A stretch of DNA of 64,000 nucleotides from NCBI GenBank assembly GCA_001692895.1, contig KV748228.1, forward strand, positions 993,344-1,057,343, in the 5' to 3' direction. This stretch comes from Cenococcum geophilum 1.58. Lineage: Eukaryota > Ascomycota > Dothideomycetes > Gloniales > Gloniaceae. Below the pieces are notes generated by a model that had not been told where the DNA came from, did no database searches, and was given only the letters and a program-made list of their open reading frames with translations. This document shows positions 20,721 to 63,096 of this stretch, one piece after another (the stretch's first letter is position 1; each line of letters begins with the position of its first letter). The translations under genes and the position numbers were made by a program.

Positions 20721-22953
20721 ATATTAGTCGGAACAGGAGATGCGATCTGTGCGTGCCGCCCAGCGAAGGCGAAAGAGCACACGGATATCGCATGGTCTCC
20801 CACCCTGGTAGAGTTGTTCAGTTGCAACCCCATTGGAGGGAGAACCGGAACACGAGTTGACGGGTTTTACTAATGCGTCCAACAATGCAGACGCTTTTTA
20901 TCAGACGTGGAACGAAAGTGAAGGCAAAGAATATGGGCGTTGTCGATCACAAAAGTCCGGCCTTGCAAGCTTGATATGGTCGTGACTCGTAGTATGTTTG
21001 GAGATAGCGGTTGAACCGGGGCTCTTGGGGAAATCAGGATGGTCAGAAGAAAGCATGCGGGGACAAGTAATCTCATGGGGGACATTTTGGGAGAAGATGG
21101 GAAAGACAGAATCCCACTCATTGTGTATGAGGGTTATCAGGTTTTGAGTTTGAGAAAGTAACTACCTGCATGACGTTTTGCACTGCGTTGCACTGGCTCT
21201 GGCACCTGTTCTGGCACTATTTATTTGCGTGGAAAAGCCTCAACGGGAACTCCCTCTGTCACTTGTCACTTTTTGAAATGCACCCACCGTCGCACCGCTT
21301 AAGCGATTGCGAATACGCGTCCAACGGTCGCGACCAAACAAAAGTATTTGCACGAGCCAAGCGCATTGACCCGTTGCCGTCTGGAGATTAGAGATGGATT
21401 CTTACGCCCATGAACAAAAGTATTTGCACGAGCCAAGCGCATTGACCCGTTGCCGTCTGGAGATTAGAGATGGATTCTTACGCCCATGAACAAAAGTATT
21501 TGCACGAGCCAAGCGCATTGACCCGTTGCCGTCTGGAGATTAGAGATGGATTCTTACGCCCATGCCGACGCGCTAGCGTCTATGGGGTTCTCTTTCAAAG
21601 TAGTGCGGTGATGGCGAGTTGGAAGAGGGAAAAATCAAAGTCCGGCCGTCTCAGATGCTGCAGGCCTTCCCTGCCGATCAGCCAGACAGCCGGTTACGGC
21701 GTCGCCAAAGGGTCATTTTGACGTTCGAGACTTCCAACCACCGGGACAGCCGAAGACACGGGGCAATCAAGTCAAGTCCCAAGTTACTTACTCGTGCTGG
21801 CGGGCATTTCCACTCAAGCATTTGTGGCGTGAGCTTGTAACATTCCGCTCATGGTGGGTTTCAAGTCATGGGCGAAGCGCTGTGAACTTCAGGTATCCCG
21901 ACTTTGTCCGTCTTTCGGTGGACATGAGGCTGAGCTGAAATAGCTTGCAGTCGTACCACGTGCTGGCTTCCCCGGCTTAGAGCCACATGGGTTGGCAAAA
22001 GGAGAACCTGGGAGAACCGGCGATTTCCCGGACTTCATCCCTAATTTAGTGCAATCAGGCAGGAACCACTAACTCCTTTCATCATGACATGCATCAAAGG
22101 ATGGGTCTAGGCTCACGCCTCTCTTCATTTGTCTTATTCTCCGTAGCGAGCGCTGTGTACTACTATAATGGCTGACCCTTGGCTCCTCTAATTACCCAGG
22201 GCGTCATTATAGTGGAACGGGTCGTCCAGAATCCCACTTTCGAAACGCTGCCTTCCTCTGCTGAAATGCTGTCACAGATTTTTTTTTGCTAGGCCGCTAC
22301 ATGGCCTGTGGCGAGTAACGTACTGTTCGTGGCATCAGAGTGCATTATCTGAATTATCTGGATTACCAGCATGACTTCAAACACCTCAAGCGGCCAAGTT
22401 CACAGCTCAGCGCAAATGCTTCACAGCGAGGCCAGCGCATTGCTTTCCAGCAGCCTTCTAGCCCTGCTTTTAGCTCTTCCCATAAAGCGGGTCCCAACTA
22501 GTTTACGCTCCCGTTCGGACAAGGCTCCCATCTGTCATCCATCCATCATCCATCCGTAATCCCAAGCATACTACTTGTAGGGCTCACCCTCGGACTCCGC
22601 AACATGAACATCTCGGTCACCCCTCTCCTGCGTGTTGCCGCATGCAAGTGCCCAAGTCCTCAATCTGAGGCGACCACAAACACCTCCAGAGGCCTGGTCA
22701 ATCATTCAACCCATCAACCCATCTGACCCTACAAGATTGTCACCATCCGGTGCCGAAATCTCATCTCGAGCAGCCTCCTGCTGCCGCCAAAGCTTGGTCG
22801 GATCATTCTGTTCCCATTCATTCCTCCTACTTTCGTCTAATCTTATTTACTTCGCTATGAGCCTGCCGTTCTTATTATATCCAAGCCTCGTTTGACCCAT
22901 TCCTTTCGAACTACAGGCCAGCCAGCCTGCTTACGGCCTTCCACCGCTCAGCC
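20721..22953. other. intergenic with tandem repeat; upstream of GPCR 2
   Basis: No gene supported apart from the tandem repeat at 21338-21565. Sequence is GC-balanced, not RIP-like. Short open frames show no domain. The last several hundred bases are pyrimidine-rich and likely hold the promoter and leader of the receptor gene at 22954. Confidence 0.35.
21338..21565. repeat. tandem repeat, 3 x 76 bp
   Basis: Three consecutive copies of a 76-bp unit beginning ACAAAAGTATTTGCACGAGC, starting at 21338, 21414 and 21490. The copies appear identical. 76 is not a multiple of three, so a coding role is unlikely. Identity suggests recent expansion. Confidence 0.9.
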
Positions 22954-40226: not shown

Positions 40227-43200
40227 ATGGGTGTTTTCAAATACGAAACGATTGATCTTGAGGGGCCTGCTTTTCGGCTGCTACGACTTTTTAAAGGCAG
40301 AGAGTCCGAGATCGAGTGCGAGCTTTGTCAAGCCTGGCTCCACGACGACAGCGCGATTTCCTATGAGGCTTTGTCATATATATGGGGCGGCACAGAAATG
40401 TCTGAACGCATAAAGATAAACGGGAGAACTCTTAGTATCACTGAAAACCTATACTTAGCGCTTCAGTATCTCCGTTTGCAGGATACGGACCGGATACTTT
40501 GGGTTGATGCTATTTGTATCAACCAAAGCAACGAGAAAGAACGAGGACATCAGGTTCAACAAATGGGGAATATATATTCTCAGGCTGATCGGGTTATTCT
40601 CTGGCTAGGACCAGCGACATACGACACAAACGTCCTCATGGACTCTCTAAAGCGACTGCAGGAAGAGAGTATTAAGCATGCGTGTAAGGACTGGAAACTC
40701 GCGGACAAGCGCTGGATGGACCTTTGGTTATCAGTACAACCTACCTTAAGGAGTCAGCATCCAGGTCTGGTAACCCGACAGCGTGAAGGTATGGAGTGCC
40801 TCTTAGGGCGGCCTTGGTTTAAGAGAGTGTGGATTTTGCAAGAAGTCGCCAACGCGAAAGCCGCTGTAGTCTGTAGCGGTACTAGGTCTATCTCGGCACG
40901 CATCTTTGCCCTTGCGCCGTTGCTAATAGGCGCAAAACCAGAACCTCATTGTCAAGCCGTCTTGGATATAATGCCAGGTTCATCGAGAAAAGAGTCTTGG
41001 TGGAGCCAGAAGCGAGATCTTTATACTCTCTTACTGAAGTTTAGGGAAAGTAAAGCAACCGACCAACGGGATATAATATACGCGCTACTTGGTATATCCT
41101 CTGATGCGCGGGACACTGATAATCTGCGTGCAGATTATACAAAAACCGTCCAGCAAGTGGTCCATAACGCCACATTATTCTTATTCGGCCTAACCGACTT
41201 CCCTTATCATACAATGGCGGAATTCATTTGCAATTTCACTTCCTTAAACACAATACATCTGAGCAGAGTTGCGACATCATGTAATGTGAATACTATAGCC
41301 GATTTTCTGGAGCAGAGAGGAGACGATGTTAATATCACAGAAGAGGTAGTTAAAGCCGCAGCAGGGAATGTAGAGAGTGGAAAAGAAGTAATGGTCTTTC
41401 TCCTGGAGCAGAGAGCAGAGGAGGTGCTTATAGCCGCGGCACGGAGCGGAAAAGAGGTAATGGCGGTTCTTCTAAAGCAGGGAGGAGCCAAAGTTAAGAT
41501 TACAGAAGAGGTGGTTAAGGCAGCAGTACGGAGCGGAGGGAAGGTAATGGCGGTTCTTCTGAAGCAGGGAGGAGCTAAAGTTAGTATTACAGAAGGGGTG
41601 GTTAAGGCGGCAGTACGGAGCGGAGGGGAGGTAATAGCCGTTCTTCTGGAGCAGAGGGCAGAGGAGGTGCTTATAGCCGCGGCACGGAGCGGAAAAGAGG
41701 TGATGGCGGTTCTTCTAAAGCAGAAAAGAGTTAAAGTTAAGATCACAGAAGAGGTGGTTAAAGCTGCAGTAGGGAATAGTTGCAGTGGAGATAAAGTAAT
41801 AGGACTTCTTCTTGAACAGCGAGGAGAGGAAGTCAATATTACAGAAGAGGTGCTTATAGCCGCAGCACAGAGTGGAAAAGAGGTAATGGCGGTTCTTCTA
41901 GAGCAGAGAGCAGAGGAAGTACTTATAGCCGCGGCACGGAGCGGAAAAGAGGTAATGGGGGTTCTTCTTAAGCAGGGAGGAGCTAAAGTTAAGATTACAG
42001 AAGAGGTGGTTAAAGCCGCAGTAGGGAATAGTTGTAGTGGAAATGAAGTAATAGGACTTCTTGAACAGCGAGGGAGAGGGAAGTTAATATTACAGAAGAG
42101 GTGCTTATAGCCGCGGCATGGAGCGGAAAAGAGGTAATGGCGGTCCTTCTAAAGCAGGGAGGAGCCAAAGTTAGGATTACAGAAGAGGTGGTTAAAGCCG
42201 CAGTAGGGAATAGTTGCAGTGGAAATGAAGTAATAGGACTTCTTCTTGAACAGCGAGGAGAGGAAGTTAATATTACAGGAAGAGGTGCTTATAGCCGCGG
42301 CATGGAGCGGAAAAAAGAGGTAATGGCGGGTCCTTCTAAAGCAGGGAGGAGCCAAAGTTTAGGATTACAGAAGAGGTGGTTAAGCCGCAGTAGGGAATAG
42401 TTGCAGTGGGAAATGAAGTAATAGGACTTCTTCTTGAACAGCGAGGAGAGGAAGTTAATATTACCGAAGAGGTGCTTATAGCCGCGGCACGGAGCGGAAA
42501 AGAGGTGGATGGCGGTTCTTCTAAAGCCGAGGAGGAGCCAAGGTTAAGATTACGGAAGAGGGTGGTTAAGGCGGCAGTACGGAGTAGAAAAGAGGTAACG
42601 GCGCTTCTTCTGGAGCAGAGGGCAGAGGAGGTGCTTATAGCCGCGGCACGGAGCGGAAAAGAGGTAATAGCGCTTCTTCTGGAGCAGAGAGCAGAGGAAG
42701 TGCTTATAGCCGCAGCACGGAGCGGAAGAGAGGTTATGGGGGTTCTTCTTAAGCAGGGAGGAGCTAAAGTTAAGATTACAGAAGAGGTGCTTATAGCCGC
42801 GGTACAGAGCGGAAAGGAGGTGATGGCGGTTCTTCTTGAGCAGGGAGCTAAAGTTAAGATTACAGAAAAGGTGGTTAAGGCGGCAGTACGAAGCGGAGGG
42901 GAGGTAATGACGGTTCTTCTAGAGCAGAGAGCAGAGGAAGTGCTTATAGCCGCGGCACAGAGTGGAAGGGAGGTGATAGCGGTCCTTCTAAAGCAGAGAG
43001 GAGCTAAAGTTAAGATTACAGAAGAGGTGGTTAAAGCCGTAGTAGGGAATAGTTGTAGTGGAAATAAAGTAATAGGACTTCTTCTTAAACAGCAAGGAGA
43101 GGAAGTTAATATTACAGAAGAGGTGCTTATAACCGCGGCACGGAGCGGAAAAGAGGTGATGGCGGTCCTTCTAAAGCAGGAAAGAGCCAAAGTTAAGATT

Positions 43201-43404
43201 ACAGAAGAGGTGGTTAAAGCAGCAATGGAGAATTACAGTAGCGGAAAAGCAATACTGGCACTTTTATTTGAAGTGTTCCCAGATACACTGCAGGAAATAC
43301 TAATTACCAATTATAACTTCAAGCGATTTACGAAAACTCTTTTTAGGGTGAGGGTCGGTGGCAGTTGGGCATATTTTAGAACTAGACATAGAGAAGGAGT
43401 TTAG
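40227..43404 (+). CDS. HET-domain protein with C-terminal short-repeat array (frame interrupted)
   Basis: The N-terminal half is a heterokaryon-incompatibility (HET) domain, the cell-death-linked domain of fungal nonself recognition: start FKYETIDLEGPAFRLLRL, then ISYEALSYIWGG, RILWVDAICINQSNEKERGH, VILWLGPA, GRPWFKRVWILQEVANA and DQRDIIYALLGIS. ATG 40227 fits the family start; upstream only a GTG is available. From about 41290 the chain turns into roughly twenty repeats of about 24-33 residues of the type EEVVKAAVRSGGEVMAVLLE, with units of two lengths. The array runs to about 43290 and ends in a non-repeat tail. The reading frame is not continuous over the array: it falls into three main open segments with several small breaks, clustered in the middle. 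These could be real decay or base-calling error in near-identical repeats. Confidence 0.85.
41290..43290 (+). repeat. coding tandem array, about 20 or more units of ~72-99 nt
   Basis: Units encode variants of ITEEVVKAAVxSGxEVMAVL; a shorter variant reads EVLIAAARSGKEVMAVLLEQ. DNA identity between distant units is very high, implying recent duplication or gene conversion. Such arrays on HET/NLR-type genes are expected to vary in unit number between strains. Confidence 0.9.
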
Positions 43405-43614
43405 TGCCTGTTTTGGTATGTCTACGTTGACAATTAGTAGTTGCACGAGCTTACAAGTACAGATGGTCTGACCTATATACGCAGTATTTTGTGGGGAATT
43501 TTGAGCTTAGAGGGGTTTCGGCTAGCTTAGAGCCTTCTAGTATACCCTGTAACGTACCGGAATCGGGGACGGTTGGGGGAGGTCGGAGGCCTGCTATCGT
43601 AGGTGACGGGGACC

Positions 43615-43790
43615 TGTCGACCTGAATCGGATTTTGTCACCTTGACTTGGTCACTGACCCCTTGACTCAGTCACCGACCCCTTGACTCGGTCACCGACTA
43701 AGTCACCCTCGTGTATATATAGAGGCCCTAGAGCCACCTTCAATAGATAGACTTCTCATTCTCGACCTGCGCACGGACCTCCGATTGACA
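43615..43790 (+). repeat. probable solo Copia-type LTR (176 bp)
   Basis: Starts TGTCGACCTGAATCGGA and ends CCGATTGACA, the same terminal bases as the Copia LTR at 30588-30816, with a shared layout (TATATATAGAGG promoter-like centre, GCACGGACCTCCGATTGACA end). It contains three near-copies of CCTTGACTCGGTCACCGA. Flanks GGACC and GGACG agree at 4 of 5. No internal region. Confidence 0.6.
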
Positions 43791-43811
43791 GGACGAGACG
43801 GAATACGTTAG

Positions 43812-43915
43812 GGTGGGGACATCCTTCCACGCTGACCAGCATGGCTAACTTGGCGTCGACGTACAGGAATCAAGGGCGGTGGAAGGAGGCCGAAGAGCTG
43901 GAGGTGCAAGTCAGA
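43812..43915 (+). pseudogene. TPR-gene fragment
   Basis: About 100 bp nearly identical to a repeat unit of the TPR gene at 49341-51168 (LASTYRNQGRWKEAEEL in that frame). It lies directly after a solo LTR and is too short to function. Orphan repeat unit left by duplication or loss. Confidence 0.65.
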
Positions 43916-44319
43916 CATGGCAATAATCAGTTCGTTAGTTACGGTTGTGTTGGATTACATAGTAACATAACTAACCAAATCATAATCGCATCTGCTGATT
44001 ATGTTACGTAGATACAACTATATAACTAAATCGGATAAGAAAAGAAGATTGTGGTGGCAACATTTAGCGCTATCCCACTTCGACACCGTTACGTATCAGT
44101 CGTAACATGCTTAGCCCGACCAGCTCCGCCGTTGCACAAGTCTCAACCCAATAGACTTCAACTTCACAAAGAACAACAAGAAGTTTTTATAGCGCCTTAG
44201 GTCGCCATATTTACTAAATCTTTTTAGAGTAGGTTCTAAGCGAGCTACAAGTATGTACTCACTCCATCTGCTCGCTTATTTAGGAGCTTCAAGCGATGGC
44301 TCTGTAAGGATGCGGAGGG

Positions 44320-44502
44320 TCAAGGATCCGTTTCCGTAGCTGGAAGCATTTTTATTAGAGATATGACCTCTTCGTTGCGGCTTGCAGATTTCAAAGCAAA
44401 TGCGAGGTTAGCCATGCCGGTCAGCGTGTCTAGATGCTTCGCCCCAAGCCCGTTCTTGCGAGTATCCATTACTTGCACCTCCCTCACCTCAACCACCTCC
44501 AC
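44320..44502 (-). pseudogene. TPR C-terminal fragment
   Basis: Minus-strand frame reading VQVMDTRKNGLGAKHLDTLT, then MANLAFALKSASRNEEVISL and a short tail. It matches the last TPR unit plus C-terminal cap of kinesin-light-chain-type fungal TPR proteins like the one at 49341. The gene body is absent. Confidence 0.6.
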
Positions 44503-44624
44503 TAGCCTTCGCTCTGATAGGTTGATGCCGGGTTGGCTTTACCAGTAAGGATTCCAAAGGTGGCCGGACAGGAGACCTTATAGAAGGATAGGGAACTTTT
44601 GACGGTGTACCTATGTCCCTGAAA

Positions 44625-45386
44625 TCAAATTGTGCCAAGACGAAGTTCTAATACGGGTCTTCTGACTCCCAAAAAGTAGCCATCCTCGCAGCGGGCAAGG
44701 ACCTTTGGGTCCCGTGCCATAAGTGACTGAGAGTAATAAATGCATAAAATACGCGATAGCCAAAGAGCAACTGCATAGGAAACGACTACTCGTAAGGCCG
44801 ATTTGGCAGACGTGGTGTACTGATATACGAATAAAAAGGTAAAGAATATTGTTATAAGAGACTGGAAAAGCCCAGGAAGCAGCCTTAGAATGGGATATAC
44901 CACAAACTTTCGGCTATAAAGAATAAATTGACTAGATATTCCCTTACTTAAGTGCTTATGGTATGTCAGCCGCAAGTAAAAATACCAAGAGAGACTAGCT
45001 AGTGGGCCGATGCCGGTAAACAATATAAGCCAGACTATATCTCCTATAGCGCAGCCGAGAAATTGTGGGCCTTTAGGCCTCGAAAGGGCGTGGTTCAAAA
45101 GCATAGGGGATGAGATAATTAGTACTTGCACGAACGAGAAAAAAACGGGATATAGTACTTTTTTGCGGCTTCGGTGTCTGTTATAGATATCTAGCCTTTA
45201 TCGGATCGTTCGGTCTACCTCTATTTCGTTAATATATAGAAAACAAGAGATTTGGCGCACCGGTAAGCCGAAGGTTCCTGTCGCAGTCCAAATACAAACA
45301 GTATGCTCGTCCATTAGAAAGAGCTCCAGAACGTTGGCCGTGGGTAGTGCCCAAACGCAGATTAGTACTGGAATTAGCGCGACCAT
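44625..45386 (-). pseudogene. multi-pass membrane protein, one premature stop
   Basis: A single minus-strand frame from ATG 45386 to the stop at 44625 (254 codons) is interrupted only by one TAA at about 45198-45200. Hydrophobic segments: MVALIPVLICVWALPTANVL, DIVWLILFTGIGPLASLSWY, PGLFQSLITIFFTFLFVY, LRVVVSYAVALWLSRILCIY. The stop lies in a polar loop (VDRTIR | RLDIYNRHRSRKK) where a glutamine codon changed by one C-to-T would restore sense, so a recent nonsense mutation is likely. Alternatively a short intron removes it, though no in-phase pair was found. Family not recognised; an N-terminal exon may be missing. Confidence 0.5.
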
Positions 45387-46576
45387 TGCTGTGCTAGCTG
45401 ATGAAATCTATTTAGAGTACTCGCTTTGTAAAGCTAGAAATGCATTTATATAGTCTACACACTGGTGATTTAGCGAGAAGGGAGCCATCCTTGCGAGAGC
45501 TTTGGTGATTAATAATATAATGTTGCTCGCTACGCAAGATTAATAAAGCTTGAAAGAAATAAGGCGGTAGGAGATTGAAGTTTCTTCGTGTTGTAAGCAA
45601 AAGGGTAAATAAAACAGTATGATATACAAGTAGAGATTTTATAGTCCCCTTTTGCCATCTTCAGGGATACCAGTCTTTGTGGAGGCTGTGGTTCAGAGGG
45701 CAGCACTCAACACGGACGCCTAAGCCCCCTGCTGCGCATTGTTTCGCCTAAAGTTGCTTGTACAATTTCCATACTGGGTGGCAAATTATTCGTGGCTCCA
45801 ATCAGTTCCAGAACGTGGTCCACGGTCCCCGTCTTGATTCGCTAGATGACAATTTAGGCACGGTTGGTTGAGGAAAGGGCGGCTGCATCGGGTTGGCTGT
45901 GCTCAATCATTAAACAAGAGTTAAGGGCCCGCTTTCAGAAGGCATCGATATCAAGCTCCCCCAATTAGGCTGCTCTCTGCCCACTCAAAGGACTGAATTG
46001 GACCCAGCGATGATGATTGCTGCTCCGGAAAGACCAATGCGAGGCTCAGTGAAGGGCCTGGGTTTGGCGAAACATACGCAGCAGACCCGTGAGCCCACAA
46101 AGCTGCGAGGGAGGTCCTATTTTGTAGAGAGTGTTGCCGTTCATCTTTAGCTCGCGGAGGCTGAGTAGGCAGGCGCGGCTGAACTGTTGGCAGTTACCTC
46201 AGCAAGGTCAGACCGTAAAATCAATTAGCGGACATACGTATATCCGCAAGCGGATATCGCTAACCTTTTTTGTCAAAAAGTTAATTCTATCCCTTTGTGT
46301 GGACTTTTCGTCCATTAGGCGCTTCGGGCGCTCCTGCCTGGGTTAGCATGCTACAGGCACCCTAGCTAGCGTGATTTTATTAGCAAGCCTTACCAAAACG
46401 CGATGCCGATAAAATGCTGTAGAAGGCTACTACTAAAAACACTTATATATATTTTAAGGAAGTTAGGCAAAAAGCCGTAATATATAACGTTATAACTATA
46501 GATTTCTACCCTTTCTCTATTAATCAGCTACTAATTATATAGGAAAATCCTCTATTAAAGTCCTCCTTTAAATTAC
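45387..46576. other. spacer, degraded sequence
   Basis: No intact gene. From about 46380 it becomes AT-rich and TAG/TAA-rich, RIP-like, and continues beyond the transposon at 48634, so the Fot/pogo element inserted into already repetitive DNA. Confidence 0.4.
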
Positions 46577-48633
46577 TACAGTAAAAACTCCTTATAACGA
46601 TAACGGGGTTATAACGATATACTCTATATTACGATCTACACCCCTTGACCAAGCCTTTTTTGGTGTAATATTACGATATTCTGACATTTGACGATATCGT
46701 AGGGGTGGCCCCACCAAAATCGTTATAAGGAGTTTTTAATTCGTCAGATTTGACCTTTCCTCACCGTAAGTTCAGCCATCAATCTTCATCACACAACGAT
46801 TAAAATCTATCAAAATAATACTCAGATCCTACTCTCCATACTCAATTCTATCTTATTTATTATGCCTAGATCTCAAAACCCTCAAAGGCAACGTCGTCAT
46901 GGGTTCTCTGACTTTGAGCGTCAGAAAATACGCGCCTACCACACAAAACACCCTCACTTATTACAAAAACACGTTGCTTTATAGGCAAGCGACTTCCTCC
47001 GTCAAAAGATTAATTAATCCTCAATATCAGAAATACTAAGCGACAAATTTAACCACCTTAATTCAGCCAAATTGCCACGCGGGCACGGCGGGCGAGAGCG
47101 ACAGCAAGCTGGCGAACATCCTCTCCTTAAAAAAGCTCTCTTTGAGTGGCACCAACGCCTGCAGATCTCACGCATTCCTATTACGGGCGATCTTATATGT
47201 ACTGCCGCATCTCAATTGTGGCAACGGATACCTCTACTAGCTCAATCGCCTAAGCCAAGGTGGTCAATTGGGTGGCTAGAGGGTTTTAAATCTCGCAACG
47301 GAATTCGCAAAAGGAAGCAATATGGCGAGGCTGCGTTAGTCAATATAGAAGGTGCTGAAGATCGCATAATAGAGCTTCGTGCGATCGTCGTGTCTTTTCC
47401 GTCAAAGGATGTTTATAATATGGATGAGACTAGGCTCTTTTGGAAGGCTACACCAGATACTATACTGGCTACTGAAGCTCTCTCAAGAATGAAAAAGTAG
47501 AAGGCAAGAGTATCTCTAGCTAATTGCTCTAACGCAGATGGCTCAGATAAGCTTCCTCTCTGGATAATTAGATCCTTAGCTCAGCCACGATGTTTTGCAA
47601 GAGCTCACGTTAATATCGCTTCGCTTGATATTATATGGAAGAGCAACAAGAAGGCCTGGATGACGACAGTGATTATAACTGAATGGCTCACCTGGTTTGA
47701 CAAAAGGATGCATAGCAGGAGAGTCCTCCTTCTACTTAACAATTTTAGCGCGCACAAAGCAGCTGTTCGAACACTTACTGAAAACAATACTCTTAAGAAT
47801 ACACGGGTCGAGTTTCTTCCTCCTAATTGTACCTCTGTATACCAGCCACTCGATTAAGGAATTATCGCAAACTTCAAGTTGTACTACCGACGATATTGGC
47901 TTAGATTTATGGTGGAGCACTCCCTCTAAGATTAAGATCCAATCAAGCAGATGCATGTTCTTTAGGCTATCCGATAGGCAATTGTAGCTTAGAAGGAAGT
48001 TACACCAAAAGCAATTGACAGTTGCTTCGTCAAATCTACTCTCTTTGGCTCAAGAGAAGGCTCGCCGCCTCACCCTTGTAATTATATAGATCCGATTGTC
48101 AATAAGGTACAAGAGATGGCTAAACAACTACGTGCTGCTGGAAGGATCCATAAGCCTATAAATATTCAGAATTTTATTTATCTTCCGGGCGAAGATGTAG
48201 TAGACTCTACTAAAGATCTTATTGAGCACATAGCGGAGCTCTACGCTAGGCCAGATCGCGATACAGAAACAGATAAGGAGGACTCCCAACAACCTCGAAT
48301 TAAACTTAATAAGGCAATAGAGGCCTTACAAAAGCTTCGTCTATATGAGGAGCAACAGGAGGATGGTGAGAGAGAGGTTATTACAACTCTATTAAGGCAC
48401 GAGCGTCGAATCCAAGGACAACGACTCCAAAACACCAAGCAGACGACGATCAAATCGTTTTTTGGTGGAGCTGATCGCTCAATTTTAACTTCGGGCTCAT
48501 AGATATGCAATATCATTATATAATTTTGACGTTTGGTGTGTTTTACGTACAAAGTCTAAATACAACGATACCTTTGGTATAACGATACGGACGGCGAAAA
48601 AAAACCGTATCGTTATAAAGAGTTTTTACTGTA
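46577..48633 (+). mobile_element. Fot/pogo-like DNA transposon (Tc1/mariner superfamily)
   Basis: 2,057 bp including TA at both ends. Terminal inverted repeats: left TACAGTAAAAACTCCTTATA, right reads the same inward with one difference over about 26 bases. A 20-bp exact inverted copy of the left repeat lies inside at 46719-46738, so the left end can fold into its own 160-bp hairpin. It carries one transposase frame at 46862-48502. Flanking DNA continues across the insertion (AATTAC before, CTACCTATCC after). Confidence 0.85.
46862..48502 (+). pseudogene. pogo/Fot1-type transposase, nonsense-riddled
   Basis: The whole protein lies in one frame with no frameshift, broken only by TAA/TAG codons (around eight), the pattern of RIP-like C-to-T change. 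Domains in order: N-terminal basic part (MPRSQNPQRQRRHGFSDFER), CENP-B/Tc5-type helix-turn-helix (GEHPLLKKALFEWHQRLQIS to WSIGWLEGFKSRNGI), DDE core with VYNMDETRLFWKA holding the first Asp, then RVLLLLNNFSAHKAA, where the usual Asp before NFSAH is Asn, then FLPPNCTSVYQPLD. The tail has a coiled, charged stretch. Asp-to-Asn fits a G-to-A change and would abolish catalysis even without the stops. Confidence 0.85.
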
Positions 48634-49340
48634 CTACCTATCCGCTTATACGTGTTCTTAATATTAATAATAATAAGCTAGTAAAGGACTAGCTTAAGGT
48701 TATAAGGGAGGACGTGCTATATACGTTAAATGAGGTGTATTAAGTGCTATAAGTGGTTAAACGGTTTAACTAGCGGTTATTCAATATCCAAGCGTTAATG
48801 AGGCGTCAGCGCCCTTGCTGCCGAGCAACCGCACTGACCAGAGGCTTCAACGCCAAGCTCTATACGGTATAGAGCCTTTAGATTGGCTTATGAGGCGTGC
48901 ACATACGAAAAGTCCATGAAAACTTGCCAGACGAAGGGACATAAATCTCTTCCAGGTTACGCCTAAGACATTTATGAGTACGTGATTAACAAAATAAAGG
49001 ATGCAGGCGGCGTGGGTCGGCCGTCCTCTCTGCTAGCGCAGGCCAACGTGTTGGGCGCTGAAATTCCCCTCTAGAGCGCCTCGGATGATGTGGGACGAAA
49101 GGTGGCTGGGGTACAAGCTCCGCCTTGCACAGCCTCATTTAGAGTATCTCCATTTCCAGGCAACACTATGAACTTCACATCTTTCTTGTTTGCCAACAAT
49201 TAGCCGAGACATTAAGACCCCATTTCAGTGTTGGCATCACCTCACGTCGTCCCTTCTCTTTTGCTATAGACTGATACTTGCTGCAGTTCCGCACAGTAAT
49301 TGCTCAGCTCCTAGCCTTGTCCCTGTACCCTCCTTCCAAG
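48634..49340. other. spacer before the TPR gene, repeat-bearing
   Basis: RIP-like AT-rich start, then GC-balanced. Near 49013 it contains GTGGGTCGGCCGTCCTCTC, related to segments near 39680 and, inverted, 51395. The last 100-150 bp may be the leader of the TPR gene. Confidence 0.4.
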
Positions 49341-51168
49341 ATGTCCTTCGGATTCTCGATCAGCGATATCATAACCTTAACGCAGCTGACCACCCGCACC
49401 TACAATGGCTGGAAAAATGCCTGCGGTGAGTACGCTAGCATTACATGTGATCTGGCCGTGCTTCAGACGCTATTGATGCGGATTAAAACGGAAGCGGAAG
49501 CCCCGAACTCTCTCTTTGCACGTAATCCCGATGACCTCAGGGGCTGGAAGACCTTGTATAAGAGTTGCTGCTCCCTTGTTGTGGAGCTAGAGGAGGTTTT
49601 GAATAAGTACAAGAGCTTGGGCACGAGCCGTCGCAGGAACTGGGATAGGATACGAATGAGTAACCGGAACTTGGATAGCCTGAGTAGACAGCTAGTGAAG
49701 AGGACGGCAAGCCTATCTGCGTTCGTTTCTGTTATGGGAATAAGCTCCCAGGTCCGGGTTGAGAACGAGGTATTCCCTGAACTGCTTCGGAGGATGGATC
49801 GCATTGCGGCACAGATAAGGAACGGTAGCGCGTCGATTAGCACTGCTCTGACAACGTACGAGAATGACGACAAGGCGGTTTGGCGGGAGTTCCGTAGAGA
49901 TATGATTAGCGCGGGAATCCGGAGTTCCGATATTCACAAGTACTCGACCGCGTTGAAGACCTATCTTTCTCGCCTCCAACGAGAGGGGTTACTGGATGAA
50001 GAGGAAACCCCTAATAGAAACATTGATAGGTTTTTAAACCCTTATCTTATCCTTCGTTAATACTTCAAACAACAGTACTAATACATAGTGTTTTAACCGC
50101 AGTGCAAGTATTCAAACTCCAGCATCCCAATCTTCCCACTCAGAAAACGACTTGCGACTTCCAACAAGGGAATTAAAGCAGGTTCAGAGAAATACGGACG
50201 ATATTAAATATACGACAGATCGCTTTACCAAGACGAAAGATCATAATTCAAGGAACGCGTCACCTAATGGACAATTGAAGGAGGCCGAAGAGCTAGGAGT
50301 GCAGGTGATGGAGACTCGAAAGAAGGAGCTTGGGGTGGAGCATCCTTCCACACTGGTGACCATGCACAACTTGGCGTCGACGTATAAGAATCAAGGGCGA
50401 TGGAAGGAGGCCGAAGAGCTAGGATTGCAGGTGATGGAGACTCGAAAGAAGGTGCTTGGGGCGGAGCATCCTTCCACACTGATGACCATGCACAACTTGG
50501 CGTCGACGTATAAGAATCAAGGGCGATGGAAGGAGGCCGAAGAGCTAGGATGCAGGTGATGGAGACTCGAAAGAAGGTGCTTGGGGGCGGAGCATCCTTC
50601 CACACTGGTGACCATGCACAACTTGGCGTCGACGTATAGGAATAAAGGGCGATGGAAGGAGGCCGAAGAGCTAGGATTGCAGGTGATGGAGACTCGAAAG
50701 AAGGTGCTTGGGGCGGAGCATCCAGACACGCTGATGACCATGCACAGCCTGGCGTTGACGTACTGGAGTCAAGGGCGATGGAAGGAGGCCGAAGAGCTGG
50801 GAGTGCAGGTGATGGAGACTAAAAAGAAGGTGCTTGGGGCGGAGCATCATTCCACGCTGATGACTATGCACAACCTGACGTCGACGTACTGGAATCAGAG
50901 GCGATGGAAGGAGGCCGAAGAGCTAGGAGTGCAGGTGATAGAGACTCGAAAGAAGGTGCTTGGGGCGGAGCATCCAGACACGCTGGCGGCCATGCACAAC
51001 CTCGCATTCACTTTCAAGTCTCAAGGCCGCGATCATGAGGCTATTTCATTAATAGAAAATTGCTTCCAGCTGCGGAAACAGGTCCTTGGTTCCCAGCATC
51101 CTCAGACAAAGTTATCACAAAAGACTCTAAGTAAGTGGGCAGATAGAAAACATAAAATCTTAAATTAA
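49341..51168 (+). CDS. helical N-terminal domain + TPR repeat protein (NLR-like accessory)
   Basis: Exon 1 49341-50029, candidate intron 50030-50102 (branch-like TACTAATAC, weak donor GTTTTT, phase 2), exon 2 50103-51168. The N-terminal ~230 residues (MSFGFSISDIITLTQLTTRT onward) are helical and resemble the N-terminal domains seen on fungal STAND/TPR proteins; no NB-ARC or NACHT lies between. Then six to seven kinesin-light-chain-type TPR units of 42 residues, near-identical (GRWKEAEELGVQVMETRKKV, LGAEHPDTLMTMHNLASTY), and a cap ending QHPQTKLSQKTLSKWADRKH. In the third unit one T is missing and one G is extra about 35 bp later: frame is lost through a TGA, then regained. That may be sequence error or a mild lesion. 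Likely role: recognition by the repeat surface. Confidence 0.7.
50275..51010 (+). repeat. coding TPR array, period 126 bp
   Basis: Six units of 126 bp with very high DNA identity (GGGCGATGGAAGGAGGCCGA recurs each period). Homogenisation suggests gene conversion or unequal crossing-over, and copy number may be polymorphic. Confidence 0.85.
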
Positions 51169-62321: not shown

Positions 62322-62770
62322 AGCCAAAGCAAAAAGAGTTTAAGGTAGGTAGGTAGGTACTCTATAGAGTAGTATTATAGTTAACGCGCGCCTCTACCGG
62401 GGCTTTTTTTAGGCCTTTTATAAGTAAAAGCAGTACTATAATAGTGACACTATTATAGAGGAGAAGCTCTGCAGGATTCACAGGCAGCAAGATAGCTTAG
62501 TGGGAGTGACATTAAGGGGTTGGGAAGTGATTCATAAGAGTGTGGGAGGGGTAAACAGATTTAGGATAGAATGCTAGGCATACTGAGAAAGTAGCCTCAC
62601 AATATCGATGTATCCTCTCTCAATTGCCAACTGTAGCGCCGTCTTTTTCTCATCAGTCGTTATGTTGATGTCAGCTTTATATTCCATCAGCAGCTTTAGA
62701 ATTGCCTTATTCCCTTTATGTGCTGCCCGGTACAGCGCCGTCCATCCACTCTCATCCTGCCTATTTACGT

Positions 62771-62993
62771 CGGCCTGGTGTTCTAGCAGTAGCTTCACAA
62801 TTGCCTCATTTCTGTTCCTTGCTGCCCAGTGCAGCGCCGTCCGTCCGTCTTTATCCTGCCCATTTACGTCGGCCTGGTGTTCTAGCAGTAGCTTCACAAT
62901 TGCCTCATTTCTGTTCCTTGCTGCCCAGTGCAGCGCCGTCCGTCCGTCTTTATCCTGCCCATTTACGTCGGCCTGGTGTTCTAGCAGCAGTTT
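62771..62993 (-). repeat. identical 99-bp ankyrin units
   Basis: Two consecutive ankyrin units with no visible differences over the 99-bp period (CAGCGCCGTCCGTCCGTCTT at 62832 and 62931), pointing to recent duplication or conversion. Confidence 0.85.
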
Positions 62994-63096
62994 CACGGTT
63001 GCTTTATCTCCGTTAATTGATGCCCAGTGCAACGCCATCCATCCATCTTTTTACGTCGGCCTGGTGTTGTAGCAGTAGCTTCGCGATTGCCTTATC

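What the first reader, a model, noticed from the sequence alone, without database searches (positions are those of the whole stretch)
40227..51168. Accessory island with two different repeat-armed, recognition-type genes
Within 11 kb there are a HET gene with about twenty short near-identical C-terminal repeats and a helical-domain/TPR gene with near-identical 42-residue repeats, plus TPR relics, a membrane-protein pseudogene and transposons. Known fungal allorecognition genes pair a death or signalling domain with homogenised, fast-evolving repeats. Finding both kinds side by side suggests a local nonself-recognition locus. The functional link between them is inference.
Basis: partly seen in the sequence, partly recalled or inferred. 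Interest (0 to 1): 0.75.

Follow-up and report, generated by a model that had tools for sequence, protein, structure and literature searches.

The report
Two fungal genes with self-copying repeats
A stretch of a large fungal genome holds two neighbouring genes that each join a known or suspected signalling domain to a row of near-identical binding repeats; both resemble fungal self/non-self sensors but show no sign of the usual switch domain, and nothing shows that they work together.

Summary
40227-43404 encodes a HET domain and 23 tandem units (last one partial) of DUF7104, an ankyrin-type repeat; 49341-51168 encodes a helical domain and about seven 42-residue TPRs. TPR relics and a pogo/Fot1-like transposon lie between.

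Added here: (1) neither gene matches a nucleotide-binding switch, so neither is an NLR; (2) each array is most like itself (DUF7104 93% against 79-81% to paralogues; TPR 84-97% against 68-73%), the mark of concerted evolution; (3) the same HET type carries ANK, DUF7104 or DUF7104+TPR arrays elsewhere, so arrays are swapped; (4) five of five close DUF7104-type paralogues have stops in the HET region (RIP-like bias clear in two), this copy none; (5) all ten counted frame breaks in the HET array lie in one 555-bp patch around its newest copies, suggesting sequence or assembly error more than decay.

A local two-gene locus is not supported: HET genes are not significantly nearer TPR arrays than kinase genes (9/150 against 4/118, P=0.40), and such arrays are scattered genome-wide. 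Best reading: two independent, NOD-less, repeat-armed candidate sensors. Allele and expression data are missing.

The parts
40227..41282 (+). HET region (profile match 40362-40844; TIR-like by literature), no stop codons
   Evidence: ORF; PF06985 E 2.4e-38; coordinates; five of five close DUF7104-type paralogues have in-frame stops in this region
41307..43260 (+). tandem array of DUF7104 (ankyrin-type) units, 23 unit starts from 41340, 23-32 aa each, last one partial
   Evidence: homogenised within the locus; dN/dS 0.30 and 0.38 on 10 of the units
42000..42570 (+). patch around the youngest copies that holds all counted frame breaks; likely consensus error, otherwise real frame loss
   Evidence: 10 of 10 counted non-3n gaps in 555 bp here, 0 in 1239 bp elsewhere, Fisher P 2.3e-7; copies 42095-42278 and 42279-42465 differ by 1 substitution, 5 gaps and 1 gap at the alignment end
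43261..43404 (+). unique C-terminal tail of the HET gene, in the place of the TPR part seen in C24 and C37
   Evidence: tail not found in the four HET paralogues C24, C37, C80, C44; DUF7104-to-TPR junction in C24 and C37
43614..43790 (+). high-copy repeat with a TATA-like stretch (LTR-like; label inferred)
   Evidence: at least 20 similar places in the genome
43800..43915 (+). fragment of one TPR unit, 97% over 92 bp to an array on C25
44290..44540 (-). second TPR fragment, 69-78% over its matches of 190 bp or more
44628..45197 (-). 190-aa hydrophobic ORF, one copy found, no family
46574..48636 (+). pogo/Fot1-like DNA transposon (class name recalled), transposase frames broken
   Evidence: inverted repeats 46574-46602 / 48608-48636, 93% complementary; HTH_Tnp_Tc5; ORFs
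49341..50057 (+). helical N-terminal domain (start MSFGFS shared by three paralogues), open frame of exon 1; true exon end undecided
50103..51168 (+). exon 2: linker and about seven TPR_10 units, the last ones diverged; frame broken near 50551-50585
   Evidence: acceptor at 50102 lines up with the paralogue C85; solved relatives are kinesin light chain and a Podospora TPR protein

Best explanation
In each, an N-terminal output domain (HET; a helical domain) is followed by an open solenoid (ankyrin-type DUF7104; TPR) with no recognisable nucleotide-binding switch between them. Proposed working: the solenoid binds a partner or ligand through its variable surface; binding brings HET domains together and starts a cell-death or stress response. 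Unequal exchange between repeats keeps each array alike and changes unit number and order, and arrays of different type are swapped onto the same HET domain. Shown here: the domains, the lack of a match to a switch domain, homogenisation, array swapping, stop codons in most close paralogues. Inferred: ligand binding, HET activation, cell death, role in self/non-self recognition. Their adjacency is most likely incidental.
For: HET and DUF7104/Ank matches; ankyrin matches in the PDB by sequence. No NACHT or NB-ARC match in the nine ORFs of the interval scanned and none on C53 in the genome-wide NB-ARC list; from the end of the HET profile match (40844) to the first DUF7104 match (41307) there are about 154 residues, fewer than the NACHT (167) or NB-ARC (248) profile. 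Homogenisation: window DUF7104 units have a median best identity of 92.7% at home and 79-81% to units of C24, C37 and C80, whose HET regions are 76-81% identical in DNA; five window TPR units have 84-97% at home, at most 85% at 11 other places, 68-73% at the paralogue C85, whose helical exon is 79% identical. Swapping on one HET subfamily: ANK in C18 (Pfam) and C25 (read from the ORF), DUF7104 without TPR in C80 and C44, DUF7104+TPR in C24 and C37 with a shared junction. The helical domain is followed by TPR in C85 and by ANK in C7. dN/dS between units 0.30, 0.38 (DUF7104) and 0.54 (TPR). HET, NACHT and WD40 families are expanded in C. geophilum (PMC5023957, passage).
Against: Both reading frames are broken as assembled. 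The splice donor of the TPR gene is uncertain: candidates at two places shared with C85 read GTTACT and GTTTTT, and the C85 candidate GTATCC reads TTATCC here. No expression or allele data. The helical domain was not assigned. The fold search with the array model ranked spliceosome, designed and armadillo-like helical proteins first, not ankyrins, from a poor model. dN/dS below 1 is no sign of diversifying selection. Mean protein identity between units (0.81 for 5 TPR, 0.84 for 8 DUF7104 units of 29 aa) is under the published 85%. Homogenisation is weaker in C80 (88% at home, 80-86% elsewhere), and the larger window array offers more chances for a good match. A NACHT profile was not searched genome-wide.
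Confidence: 0.55

Rival explanations
1. Both genes are decaying relics of a genome-wide HET/TPR/ANK expansion in repeat-rich DNA, with no present function.
For: Frame breaks in both; uncertain splice donor; TPR and ANK fragments, a broken transposon and high-copy repeats around them; five of five close DUF7104-type HET paralogues carry in-frame stops (C24 1, C44 2, C80 7, C37 10, C73 28).
Against: The HET region of the window copy has no stop; repeat units show dN/dS well below 1, which is past constraint; all counted frame breaks sit in one 555-bp patch with no excess of substitutions, 26 in 555 bp against 113 in 1239 bp.
Confidence: 0.27
2. One functional two-gene recognition locus: the HET gene is the effector and the TPR gene its partner or regulator.
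For: C24, with the closest HET paralogue, has a divergent NB-ARC-TPR gene starting 0.4-1.4 kb away; C37 has a weak HET match and a TPR array about 10 kb off; DUF7104 and TPR stand in line in C24, C37 and C8.
Against: No significant HET-TPR proximity in general; the window's neighbour differs from the C24 gene and has no NB-ARC match; a transposon and a one-copy ORF lie between.
Confidence: 0.1
3. The genes are sensors, but for enemies of other species or for development rather than for allorecognition. This overlaps with the best explanation, which leaves the ligand open.
For: [quoted passage not shown]
Against: None specific; the sequence cannot separate the two.
Confidence: 0.4

Closest known systems
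Podospora anserina HNWD family (het-d, het-e, het-r: HET-NACHT-WD40)
   Same: HET domain joined to homogenised tandem repeats; repeat arrays that are hard to assemble (PMC12222747, passages)
   Different: no NACHT match here; DUF7104/ankyrin-type repeats instead of WD40; incompatibility function unknown
Fungal NLRs with highly conserved ANK and TPR repeats (Dyrka et al. 2014, PMC4986451, passages and one section read)
   Same: ANK- and TPR-type arrays of like units with signs of concerted evolution
   Different: both window genes lack a NOD match; unit identity on average below the paper's 85%; no diversifying selection shown
HET-ANK genes of the same genome (C25:1005411, C18:1402816)
   Same: same HET subfamily at 54-55% protein identity
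   Different: classical ankyrin units instead of DUF7104; no stop codons
Podospora TPR protein 4y6c/4y6w and kinesin light chains
   Same: 42-residue TPR units, E 6e-34 and 2e-50 by sequence
   Different: solved as isolated repeat domains; no sensor function shown in these calls

Membership tests
HET domain family (PF06985) | full-length profile match over the curated cut-off | tested here: met
   132.2 bits against 22.5, profile 1-146 of 146
Fungal NLR (STAND) | NACHT or NB-ARC domain between effector and repeats | tested here: not met
   no such match in the nine ORFs scanned; about 154 residues between the HET profile match and the first DUF7104 match; C53 absent from the genome-wide NB-ARC list; NACHT not searched genome-wide
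Repeats with high internal conservation (Dyrka et al. 2014) | over 85% identity over at least 100 aa | tested here: inconclusive
   mean pairwise 0.81 (5 TPR units) and 0.84 (8 DUF7104 units of 29 aa); nearest neighbour at least 0.85 in 4 of 5 and 7 of 8
Repeats with high internal conservation (Dyrka et al. 2014) | within-locus homogenisation (concerted evolution) | tested here: met
   weak in C80
het (vegetative incompatibility) gene | alleles that cause death or barrage on fusion; balanced polymorphism | not testable with these tools
   no isolates of the species held
Ankyrin repeat superfamily (for DUF7104) | match to ankyrin profiles or solved ankyrin proteins | tested here: met
   Ank_2 53.6 bits against 27.3; DARPin matches, best E 1.3e-7. 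Against: array model helical at block pLDDT 51-83, but no ankyrin at the top of the fold search
HeLo-like / SesA N-terminal domains (for the helical domain) | profile match over cut-off, or MLKL-like four-helix fold | tested here: not met
   no match in the window protein; a 29% relative reaches 17.0 of 27.2 bits for PF17111 and 16.2 of 26.3 for SesA; hhalign to a SesA domain Prob 6.5, E 0.0057; fold search none below E 0.001 from a single-sequence model of pLDDT 69.9

The most novel reading that the evidence does not exclude
This genome holds a class of switch-less sensors in which a HET effector is followed by a fast-homogenising ankyrin-type (DUF7104) solenoid, and whole arrays (ANK, DUF7104, DUF7104+TPR; in a second group HET-TPR-DUF7104) are exchanged onto the effector. 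Recognition would be coupled to cell death by array-driven clustering, without nucleotide-dependent activation.
Probability: 0.25. Interest if true: 0.65.

Novelty: new variant of a known kind. Interest (0 to 1): 0.42.

Why it matters
The papers seen here describe fast-evolving repeat sensors of fungi mainly as NLRs. A HET domain followed by a homogenising ankyrin-type array, with no NOD, would show that the fast-evolving sensor part can be used without the switch, and it widens the set of genes to look at in allorecognition screens. It also warns that such arrays may be assembled badly, so that good genes may be filed as pseudogenes. The name DUF7104 occurs in no paper of the searched library.

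Tried and rejected
Linkage of HET and TPR genes: not supported by the kinase control (lists condensed by hand from capped tables: 68 TPR places including the window's gene and two relics, 150 HET matches of 439 candidates, 118 kinase places from 131 rows; TPR stretches fused to a HET gene were not removed). Classing the helical domain as HeLo-like or SesA: not met. Fold of the HET part: useless, block pLDDT 20-33 over residues 1-350. PDB relatives of the HET region by sequence: none. Second structural aligner: library absent. NCBIfam: nothing over its cut-off. In one search, C44 gave no units to the pattern and C37 one, so they say little there. In one search the unit at 42555 and the last unit were left out. 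In one search only 10 in-frame units of 23 and 29 aa were used, and its TPR part was read in a wrong frame and redone, which used only units passing a pattern (58 in all, 5 from the window). Other TPR arrays gave dN/dS 0.24 to 1.09. The RIP test covered six paralogues and is read against the window copy, not an ancestor. The TPR relic as the lost tail of the HET gene: possible (C37 91%), but C25-type arrays are closer.
Full report
Setting. The window lies in a 177.2-Mb genome of 162 contigs, at C53:993344-1057343. The size fits Cenococcum geophilum, published at 178 Mb with 81% repeated sequence and with expanded families showing HET, NACHT and WD40 domains (PMC5023957, passages). The species name is inferred from size alone.

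HET gene. The frame opens at ATG 40227 and runs to 42110, with a full-length HET profile match (40362-40844) and DUF7104 repeats from 41307. About 154 residues lie between the two, with no family match; NACHT and NB-ARC profiles are longer (167 and 248 positions). The array goes on in other frames to about 43260 and ends in a tail with a stop at 43404 that is not found in C24, C37, C80 or C44. DUF7104 is an ankyrin-type repeat by sequence: the same stretch passes the Ank_2 cut-off and matches designed ankyrin proteins in the PDB. The structure search did not add to this. Units come in lengths of 23, 26, 28, 29 and 32 residues, while the six C24 units extracted are 32, and three of five from C80.

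Frame breaks. Compared with the nearest unit outside the patch, six units between 42000 and 42554 hold 10 frame-breaking gaps and 26 substitutions in 555 bp; the other 15 units counted hold none and 113 substitutions in 1239 bp (Fisher P 2.3e-7; the unit at 42555, with one extra base, and the last unit were left out). Two neighbouring copies of about 183 bp differ by one substitution and five gaps, all five in short runs of one base, plus one gap at the end of the alignment. Ordinary decay should bring substitutions too; sequencing or assembly error in young tandem copies fits better. In Podospora a one-base deletion in such an array was traced to a misassembled homopolymer, but two stop codons in another strain's array were confirmed by reads (PMC12222747, passage), so real frame loss is not excluded.

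TPR gene. A helical exon of about 230 residues is followed by an intron and about seven 42-residue TPR units. Its paralogue C85:111212 has 71% protein identity in the helical domain and an open TPR frame. The acceptor at 50102 lines up with the paralogue's; the donor is unclear: places 49988 (GTTACT) and 50030 (GTTTTT) are shared with C85, while the C85 candidate GTATCC reads TTATCC here. A more distant relative, C7:1779069 (29%), is followed by ankyrin repeats. The three share the first six residues MSFGFS. A fourth match, C20 (22%), has no family match. The domain was not assigned.

Homogenisation. Five window TPR units have a best match of 84-97% DNA identity inside the array, at most 85% at 11 other TPR places tested, and 68-73% at the paralogue, although the helical exons are 79% identical. 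Window DUF7104 units (16): median best match 92.7% at home and 79-81% at C24 (6 units), C37 (1) and C80 (5); C24 units 94.8% at home and 84-86% elsewhere; C80 units only 88.4% at home and 80-86% elsewhere. The HET regions themselves are 76-81% identical in DNA. The window and C24 arrays have thus been re-made since the genes parted, with the caveat that a bigger array gives more chances for a good match. dN/dS between units is 0.30 (6 units), 0.38 (4 units) and 0.54 (5 TPR units): past constraint, not diversifying selection.

Array swapping and the genome-wide setting. DUF7104 places number at least 26 (150 scored of 399 candidates); 11 of 26 have a HET match within 4 kb upstream on the same strand, the window included. 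Measured from the HET profile match, the array starts after about 460 bp in the window, C24 and C80; the 25-34 bp printed are measured from the end of my 352-residue query. In a second group of six (C28, C81, C27, C54, C29, C43) the gap is 1.36-1.49 kb, and in the four scanned (C28, C81, C27, C54) a TPR stretch lies before the DUF7104 array. C24 and C37 share a junction from DUF7104 to TPR; C8 has another in one frame. C18 and C25 join the same HET subfamily to ankyrin repeats. Stop codons in the 352-residue HET region: window 0, C24 1, C44 2, C80 7, C37 10, C73 28 (its array seen only as DNA similarity), C25 0, C18 0; a further relative, C3:6016943 (56%, two pieces), has 0 and 7 and its repeats were not examined. 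C-to-T plus G-to-A against the reverse: C80 125 to 49, C37 107 to 41, C24 88 to 58, C44 79 to 69, C25 110 to 81, C18 89 to 84. The first two have the direction expected of RIP.

Pairing. Within 25 kb of a TPR array lie 9 of 150 HET matches and 4 of 118 kinase matches (P 0.40; without C53, 8 of 148, P 0.56). C24 has a divergent NB-ARC-TPR gene, with a SesA frame upstream, next to its HET gene, so the subfamily may be a special case, but the numbers are too small.

Judgement. Two NOD-less, repeat-armed candidate sensors, independent of each other; the HET gene is the only one of its close DUF7104-type kind examined here without stops in the HET region. Recognition is inference by analogy.

Noticed in passing
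window 62574-63050 (-); L074 218-694 and 1496-1846: Remnant of an ankyrin-repeat gene with 99-bp near-identical units; a further unit lies upstream outside the window in another frame, so the gene looks broken.
   Followed up: partly
window 46574-48636: pogo/Fot1-like transposon with 29-nt inverted repeats, 93% complementary, and broken transposase frames.
   Followed up: partly
window 43614-43790: High-copy repeat with a 20-bp tandem core and a TATA-like stretch, at least 20 similar places in the genome; LTR or promoter-bearing element.
   Followed up: no
L058 268-3570 (C24): NB-ARC-TPR frame with a SesA frame upstream, divergent from a HET-DUF7104-TPR gene: an NLR beside a HET gene.
   Followed up: partly
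L030 (C27:98115) and L023 (C29:1132505): DUF7104 arrays near an alpha-kinase domain and after an ankyrin stretch with a winged-helix match below its cut-off, so DUF7104 seems not to be tied to HET.
   Followed up: no
window 21337-21564: Three perfect 76-bp tandem copies (100% matches), unexplained.
   Followed up: no
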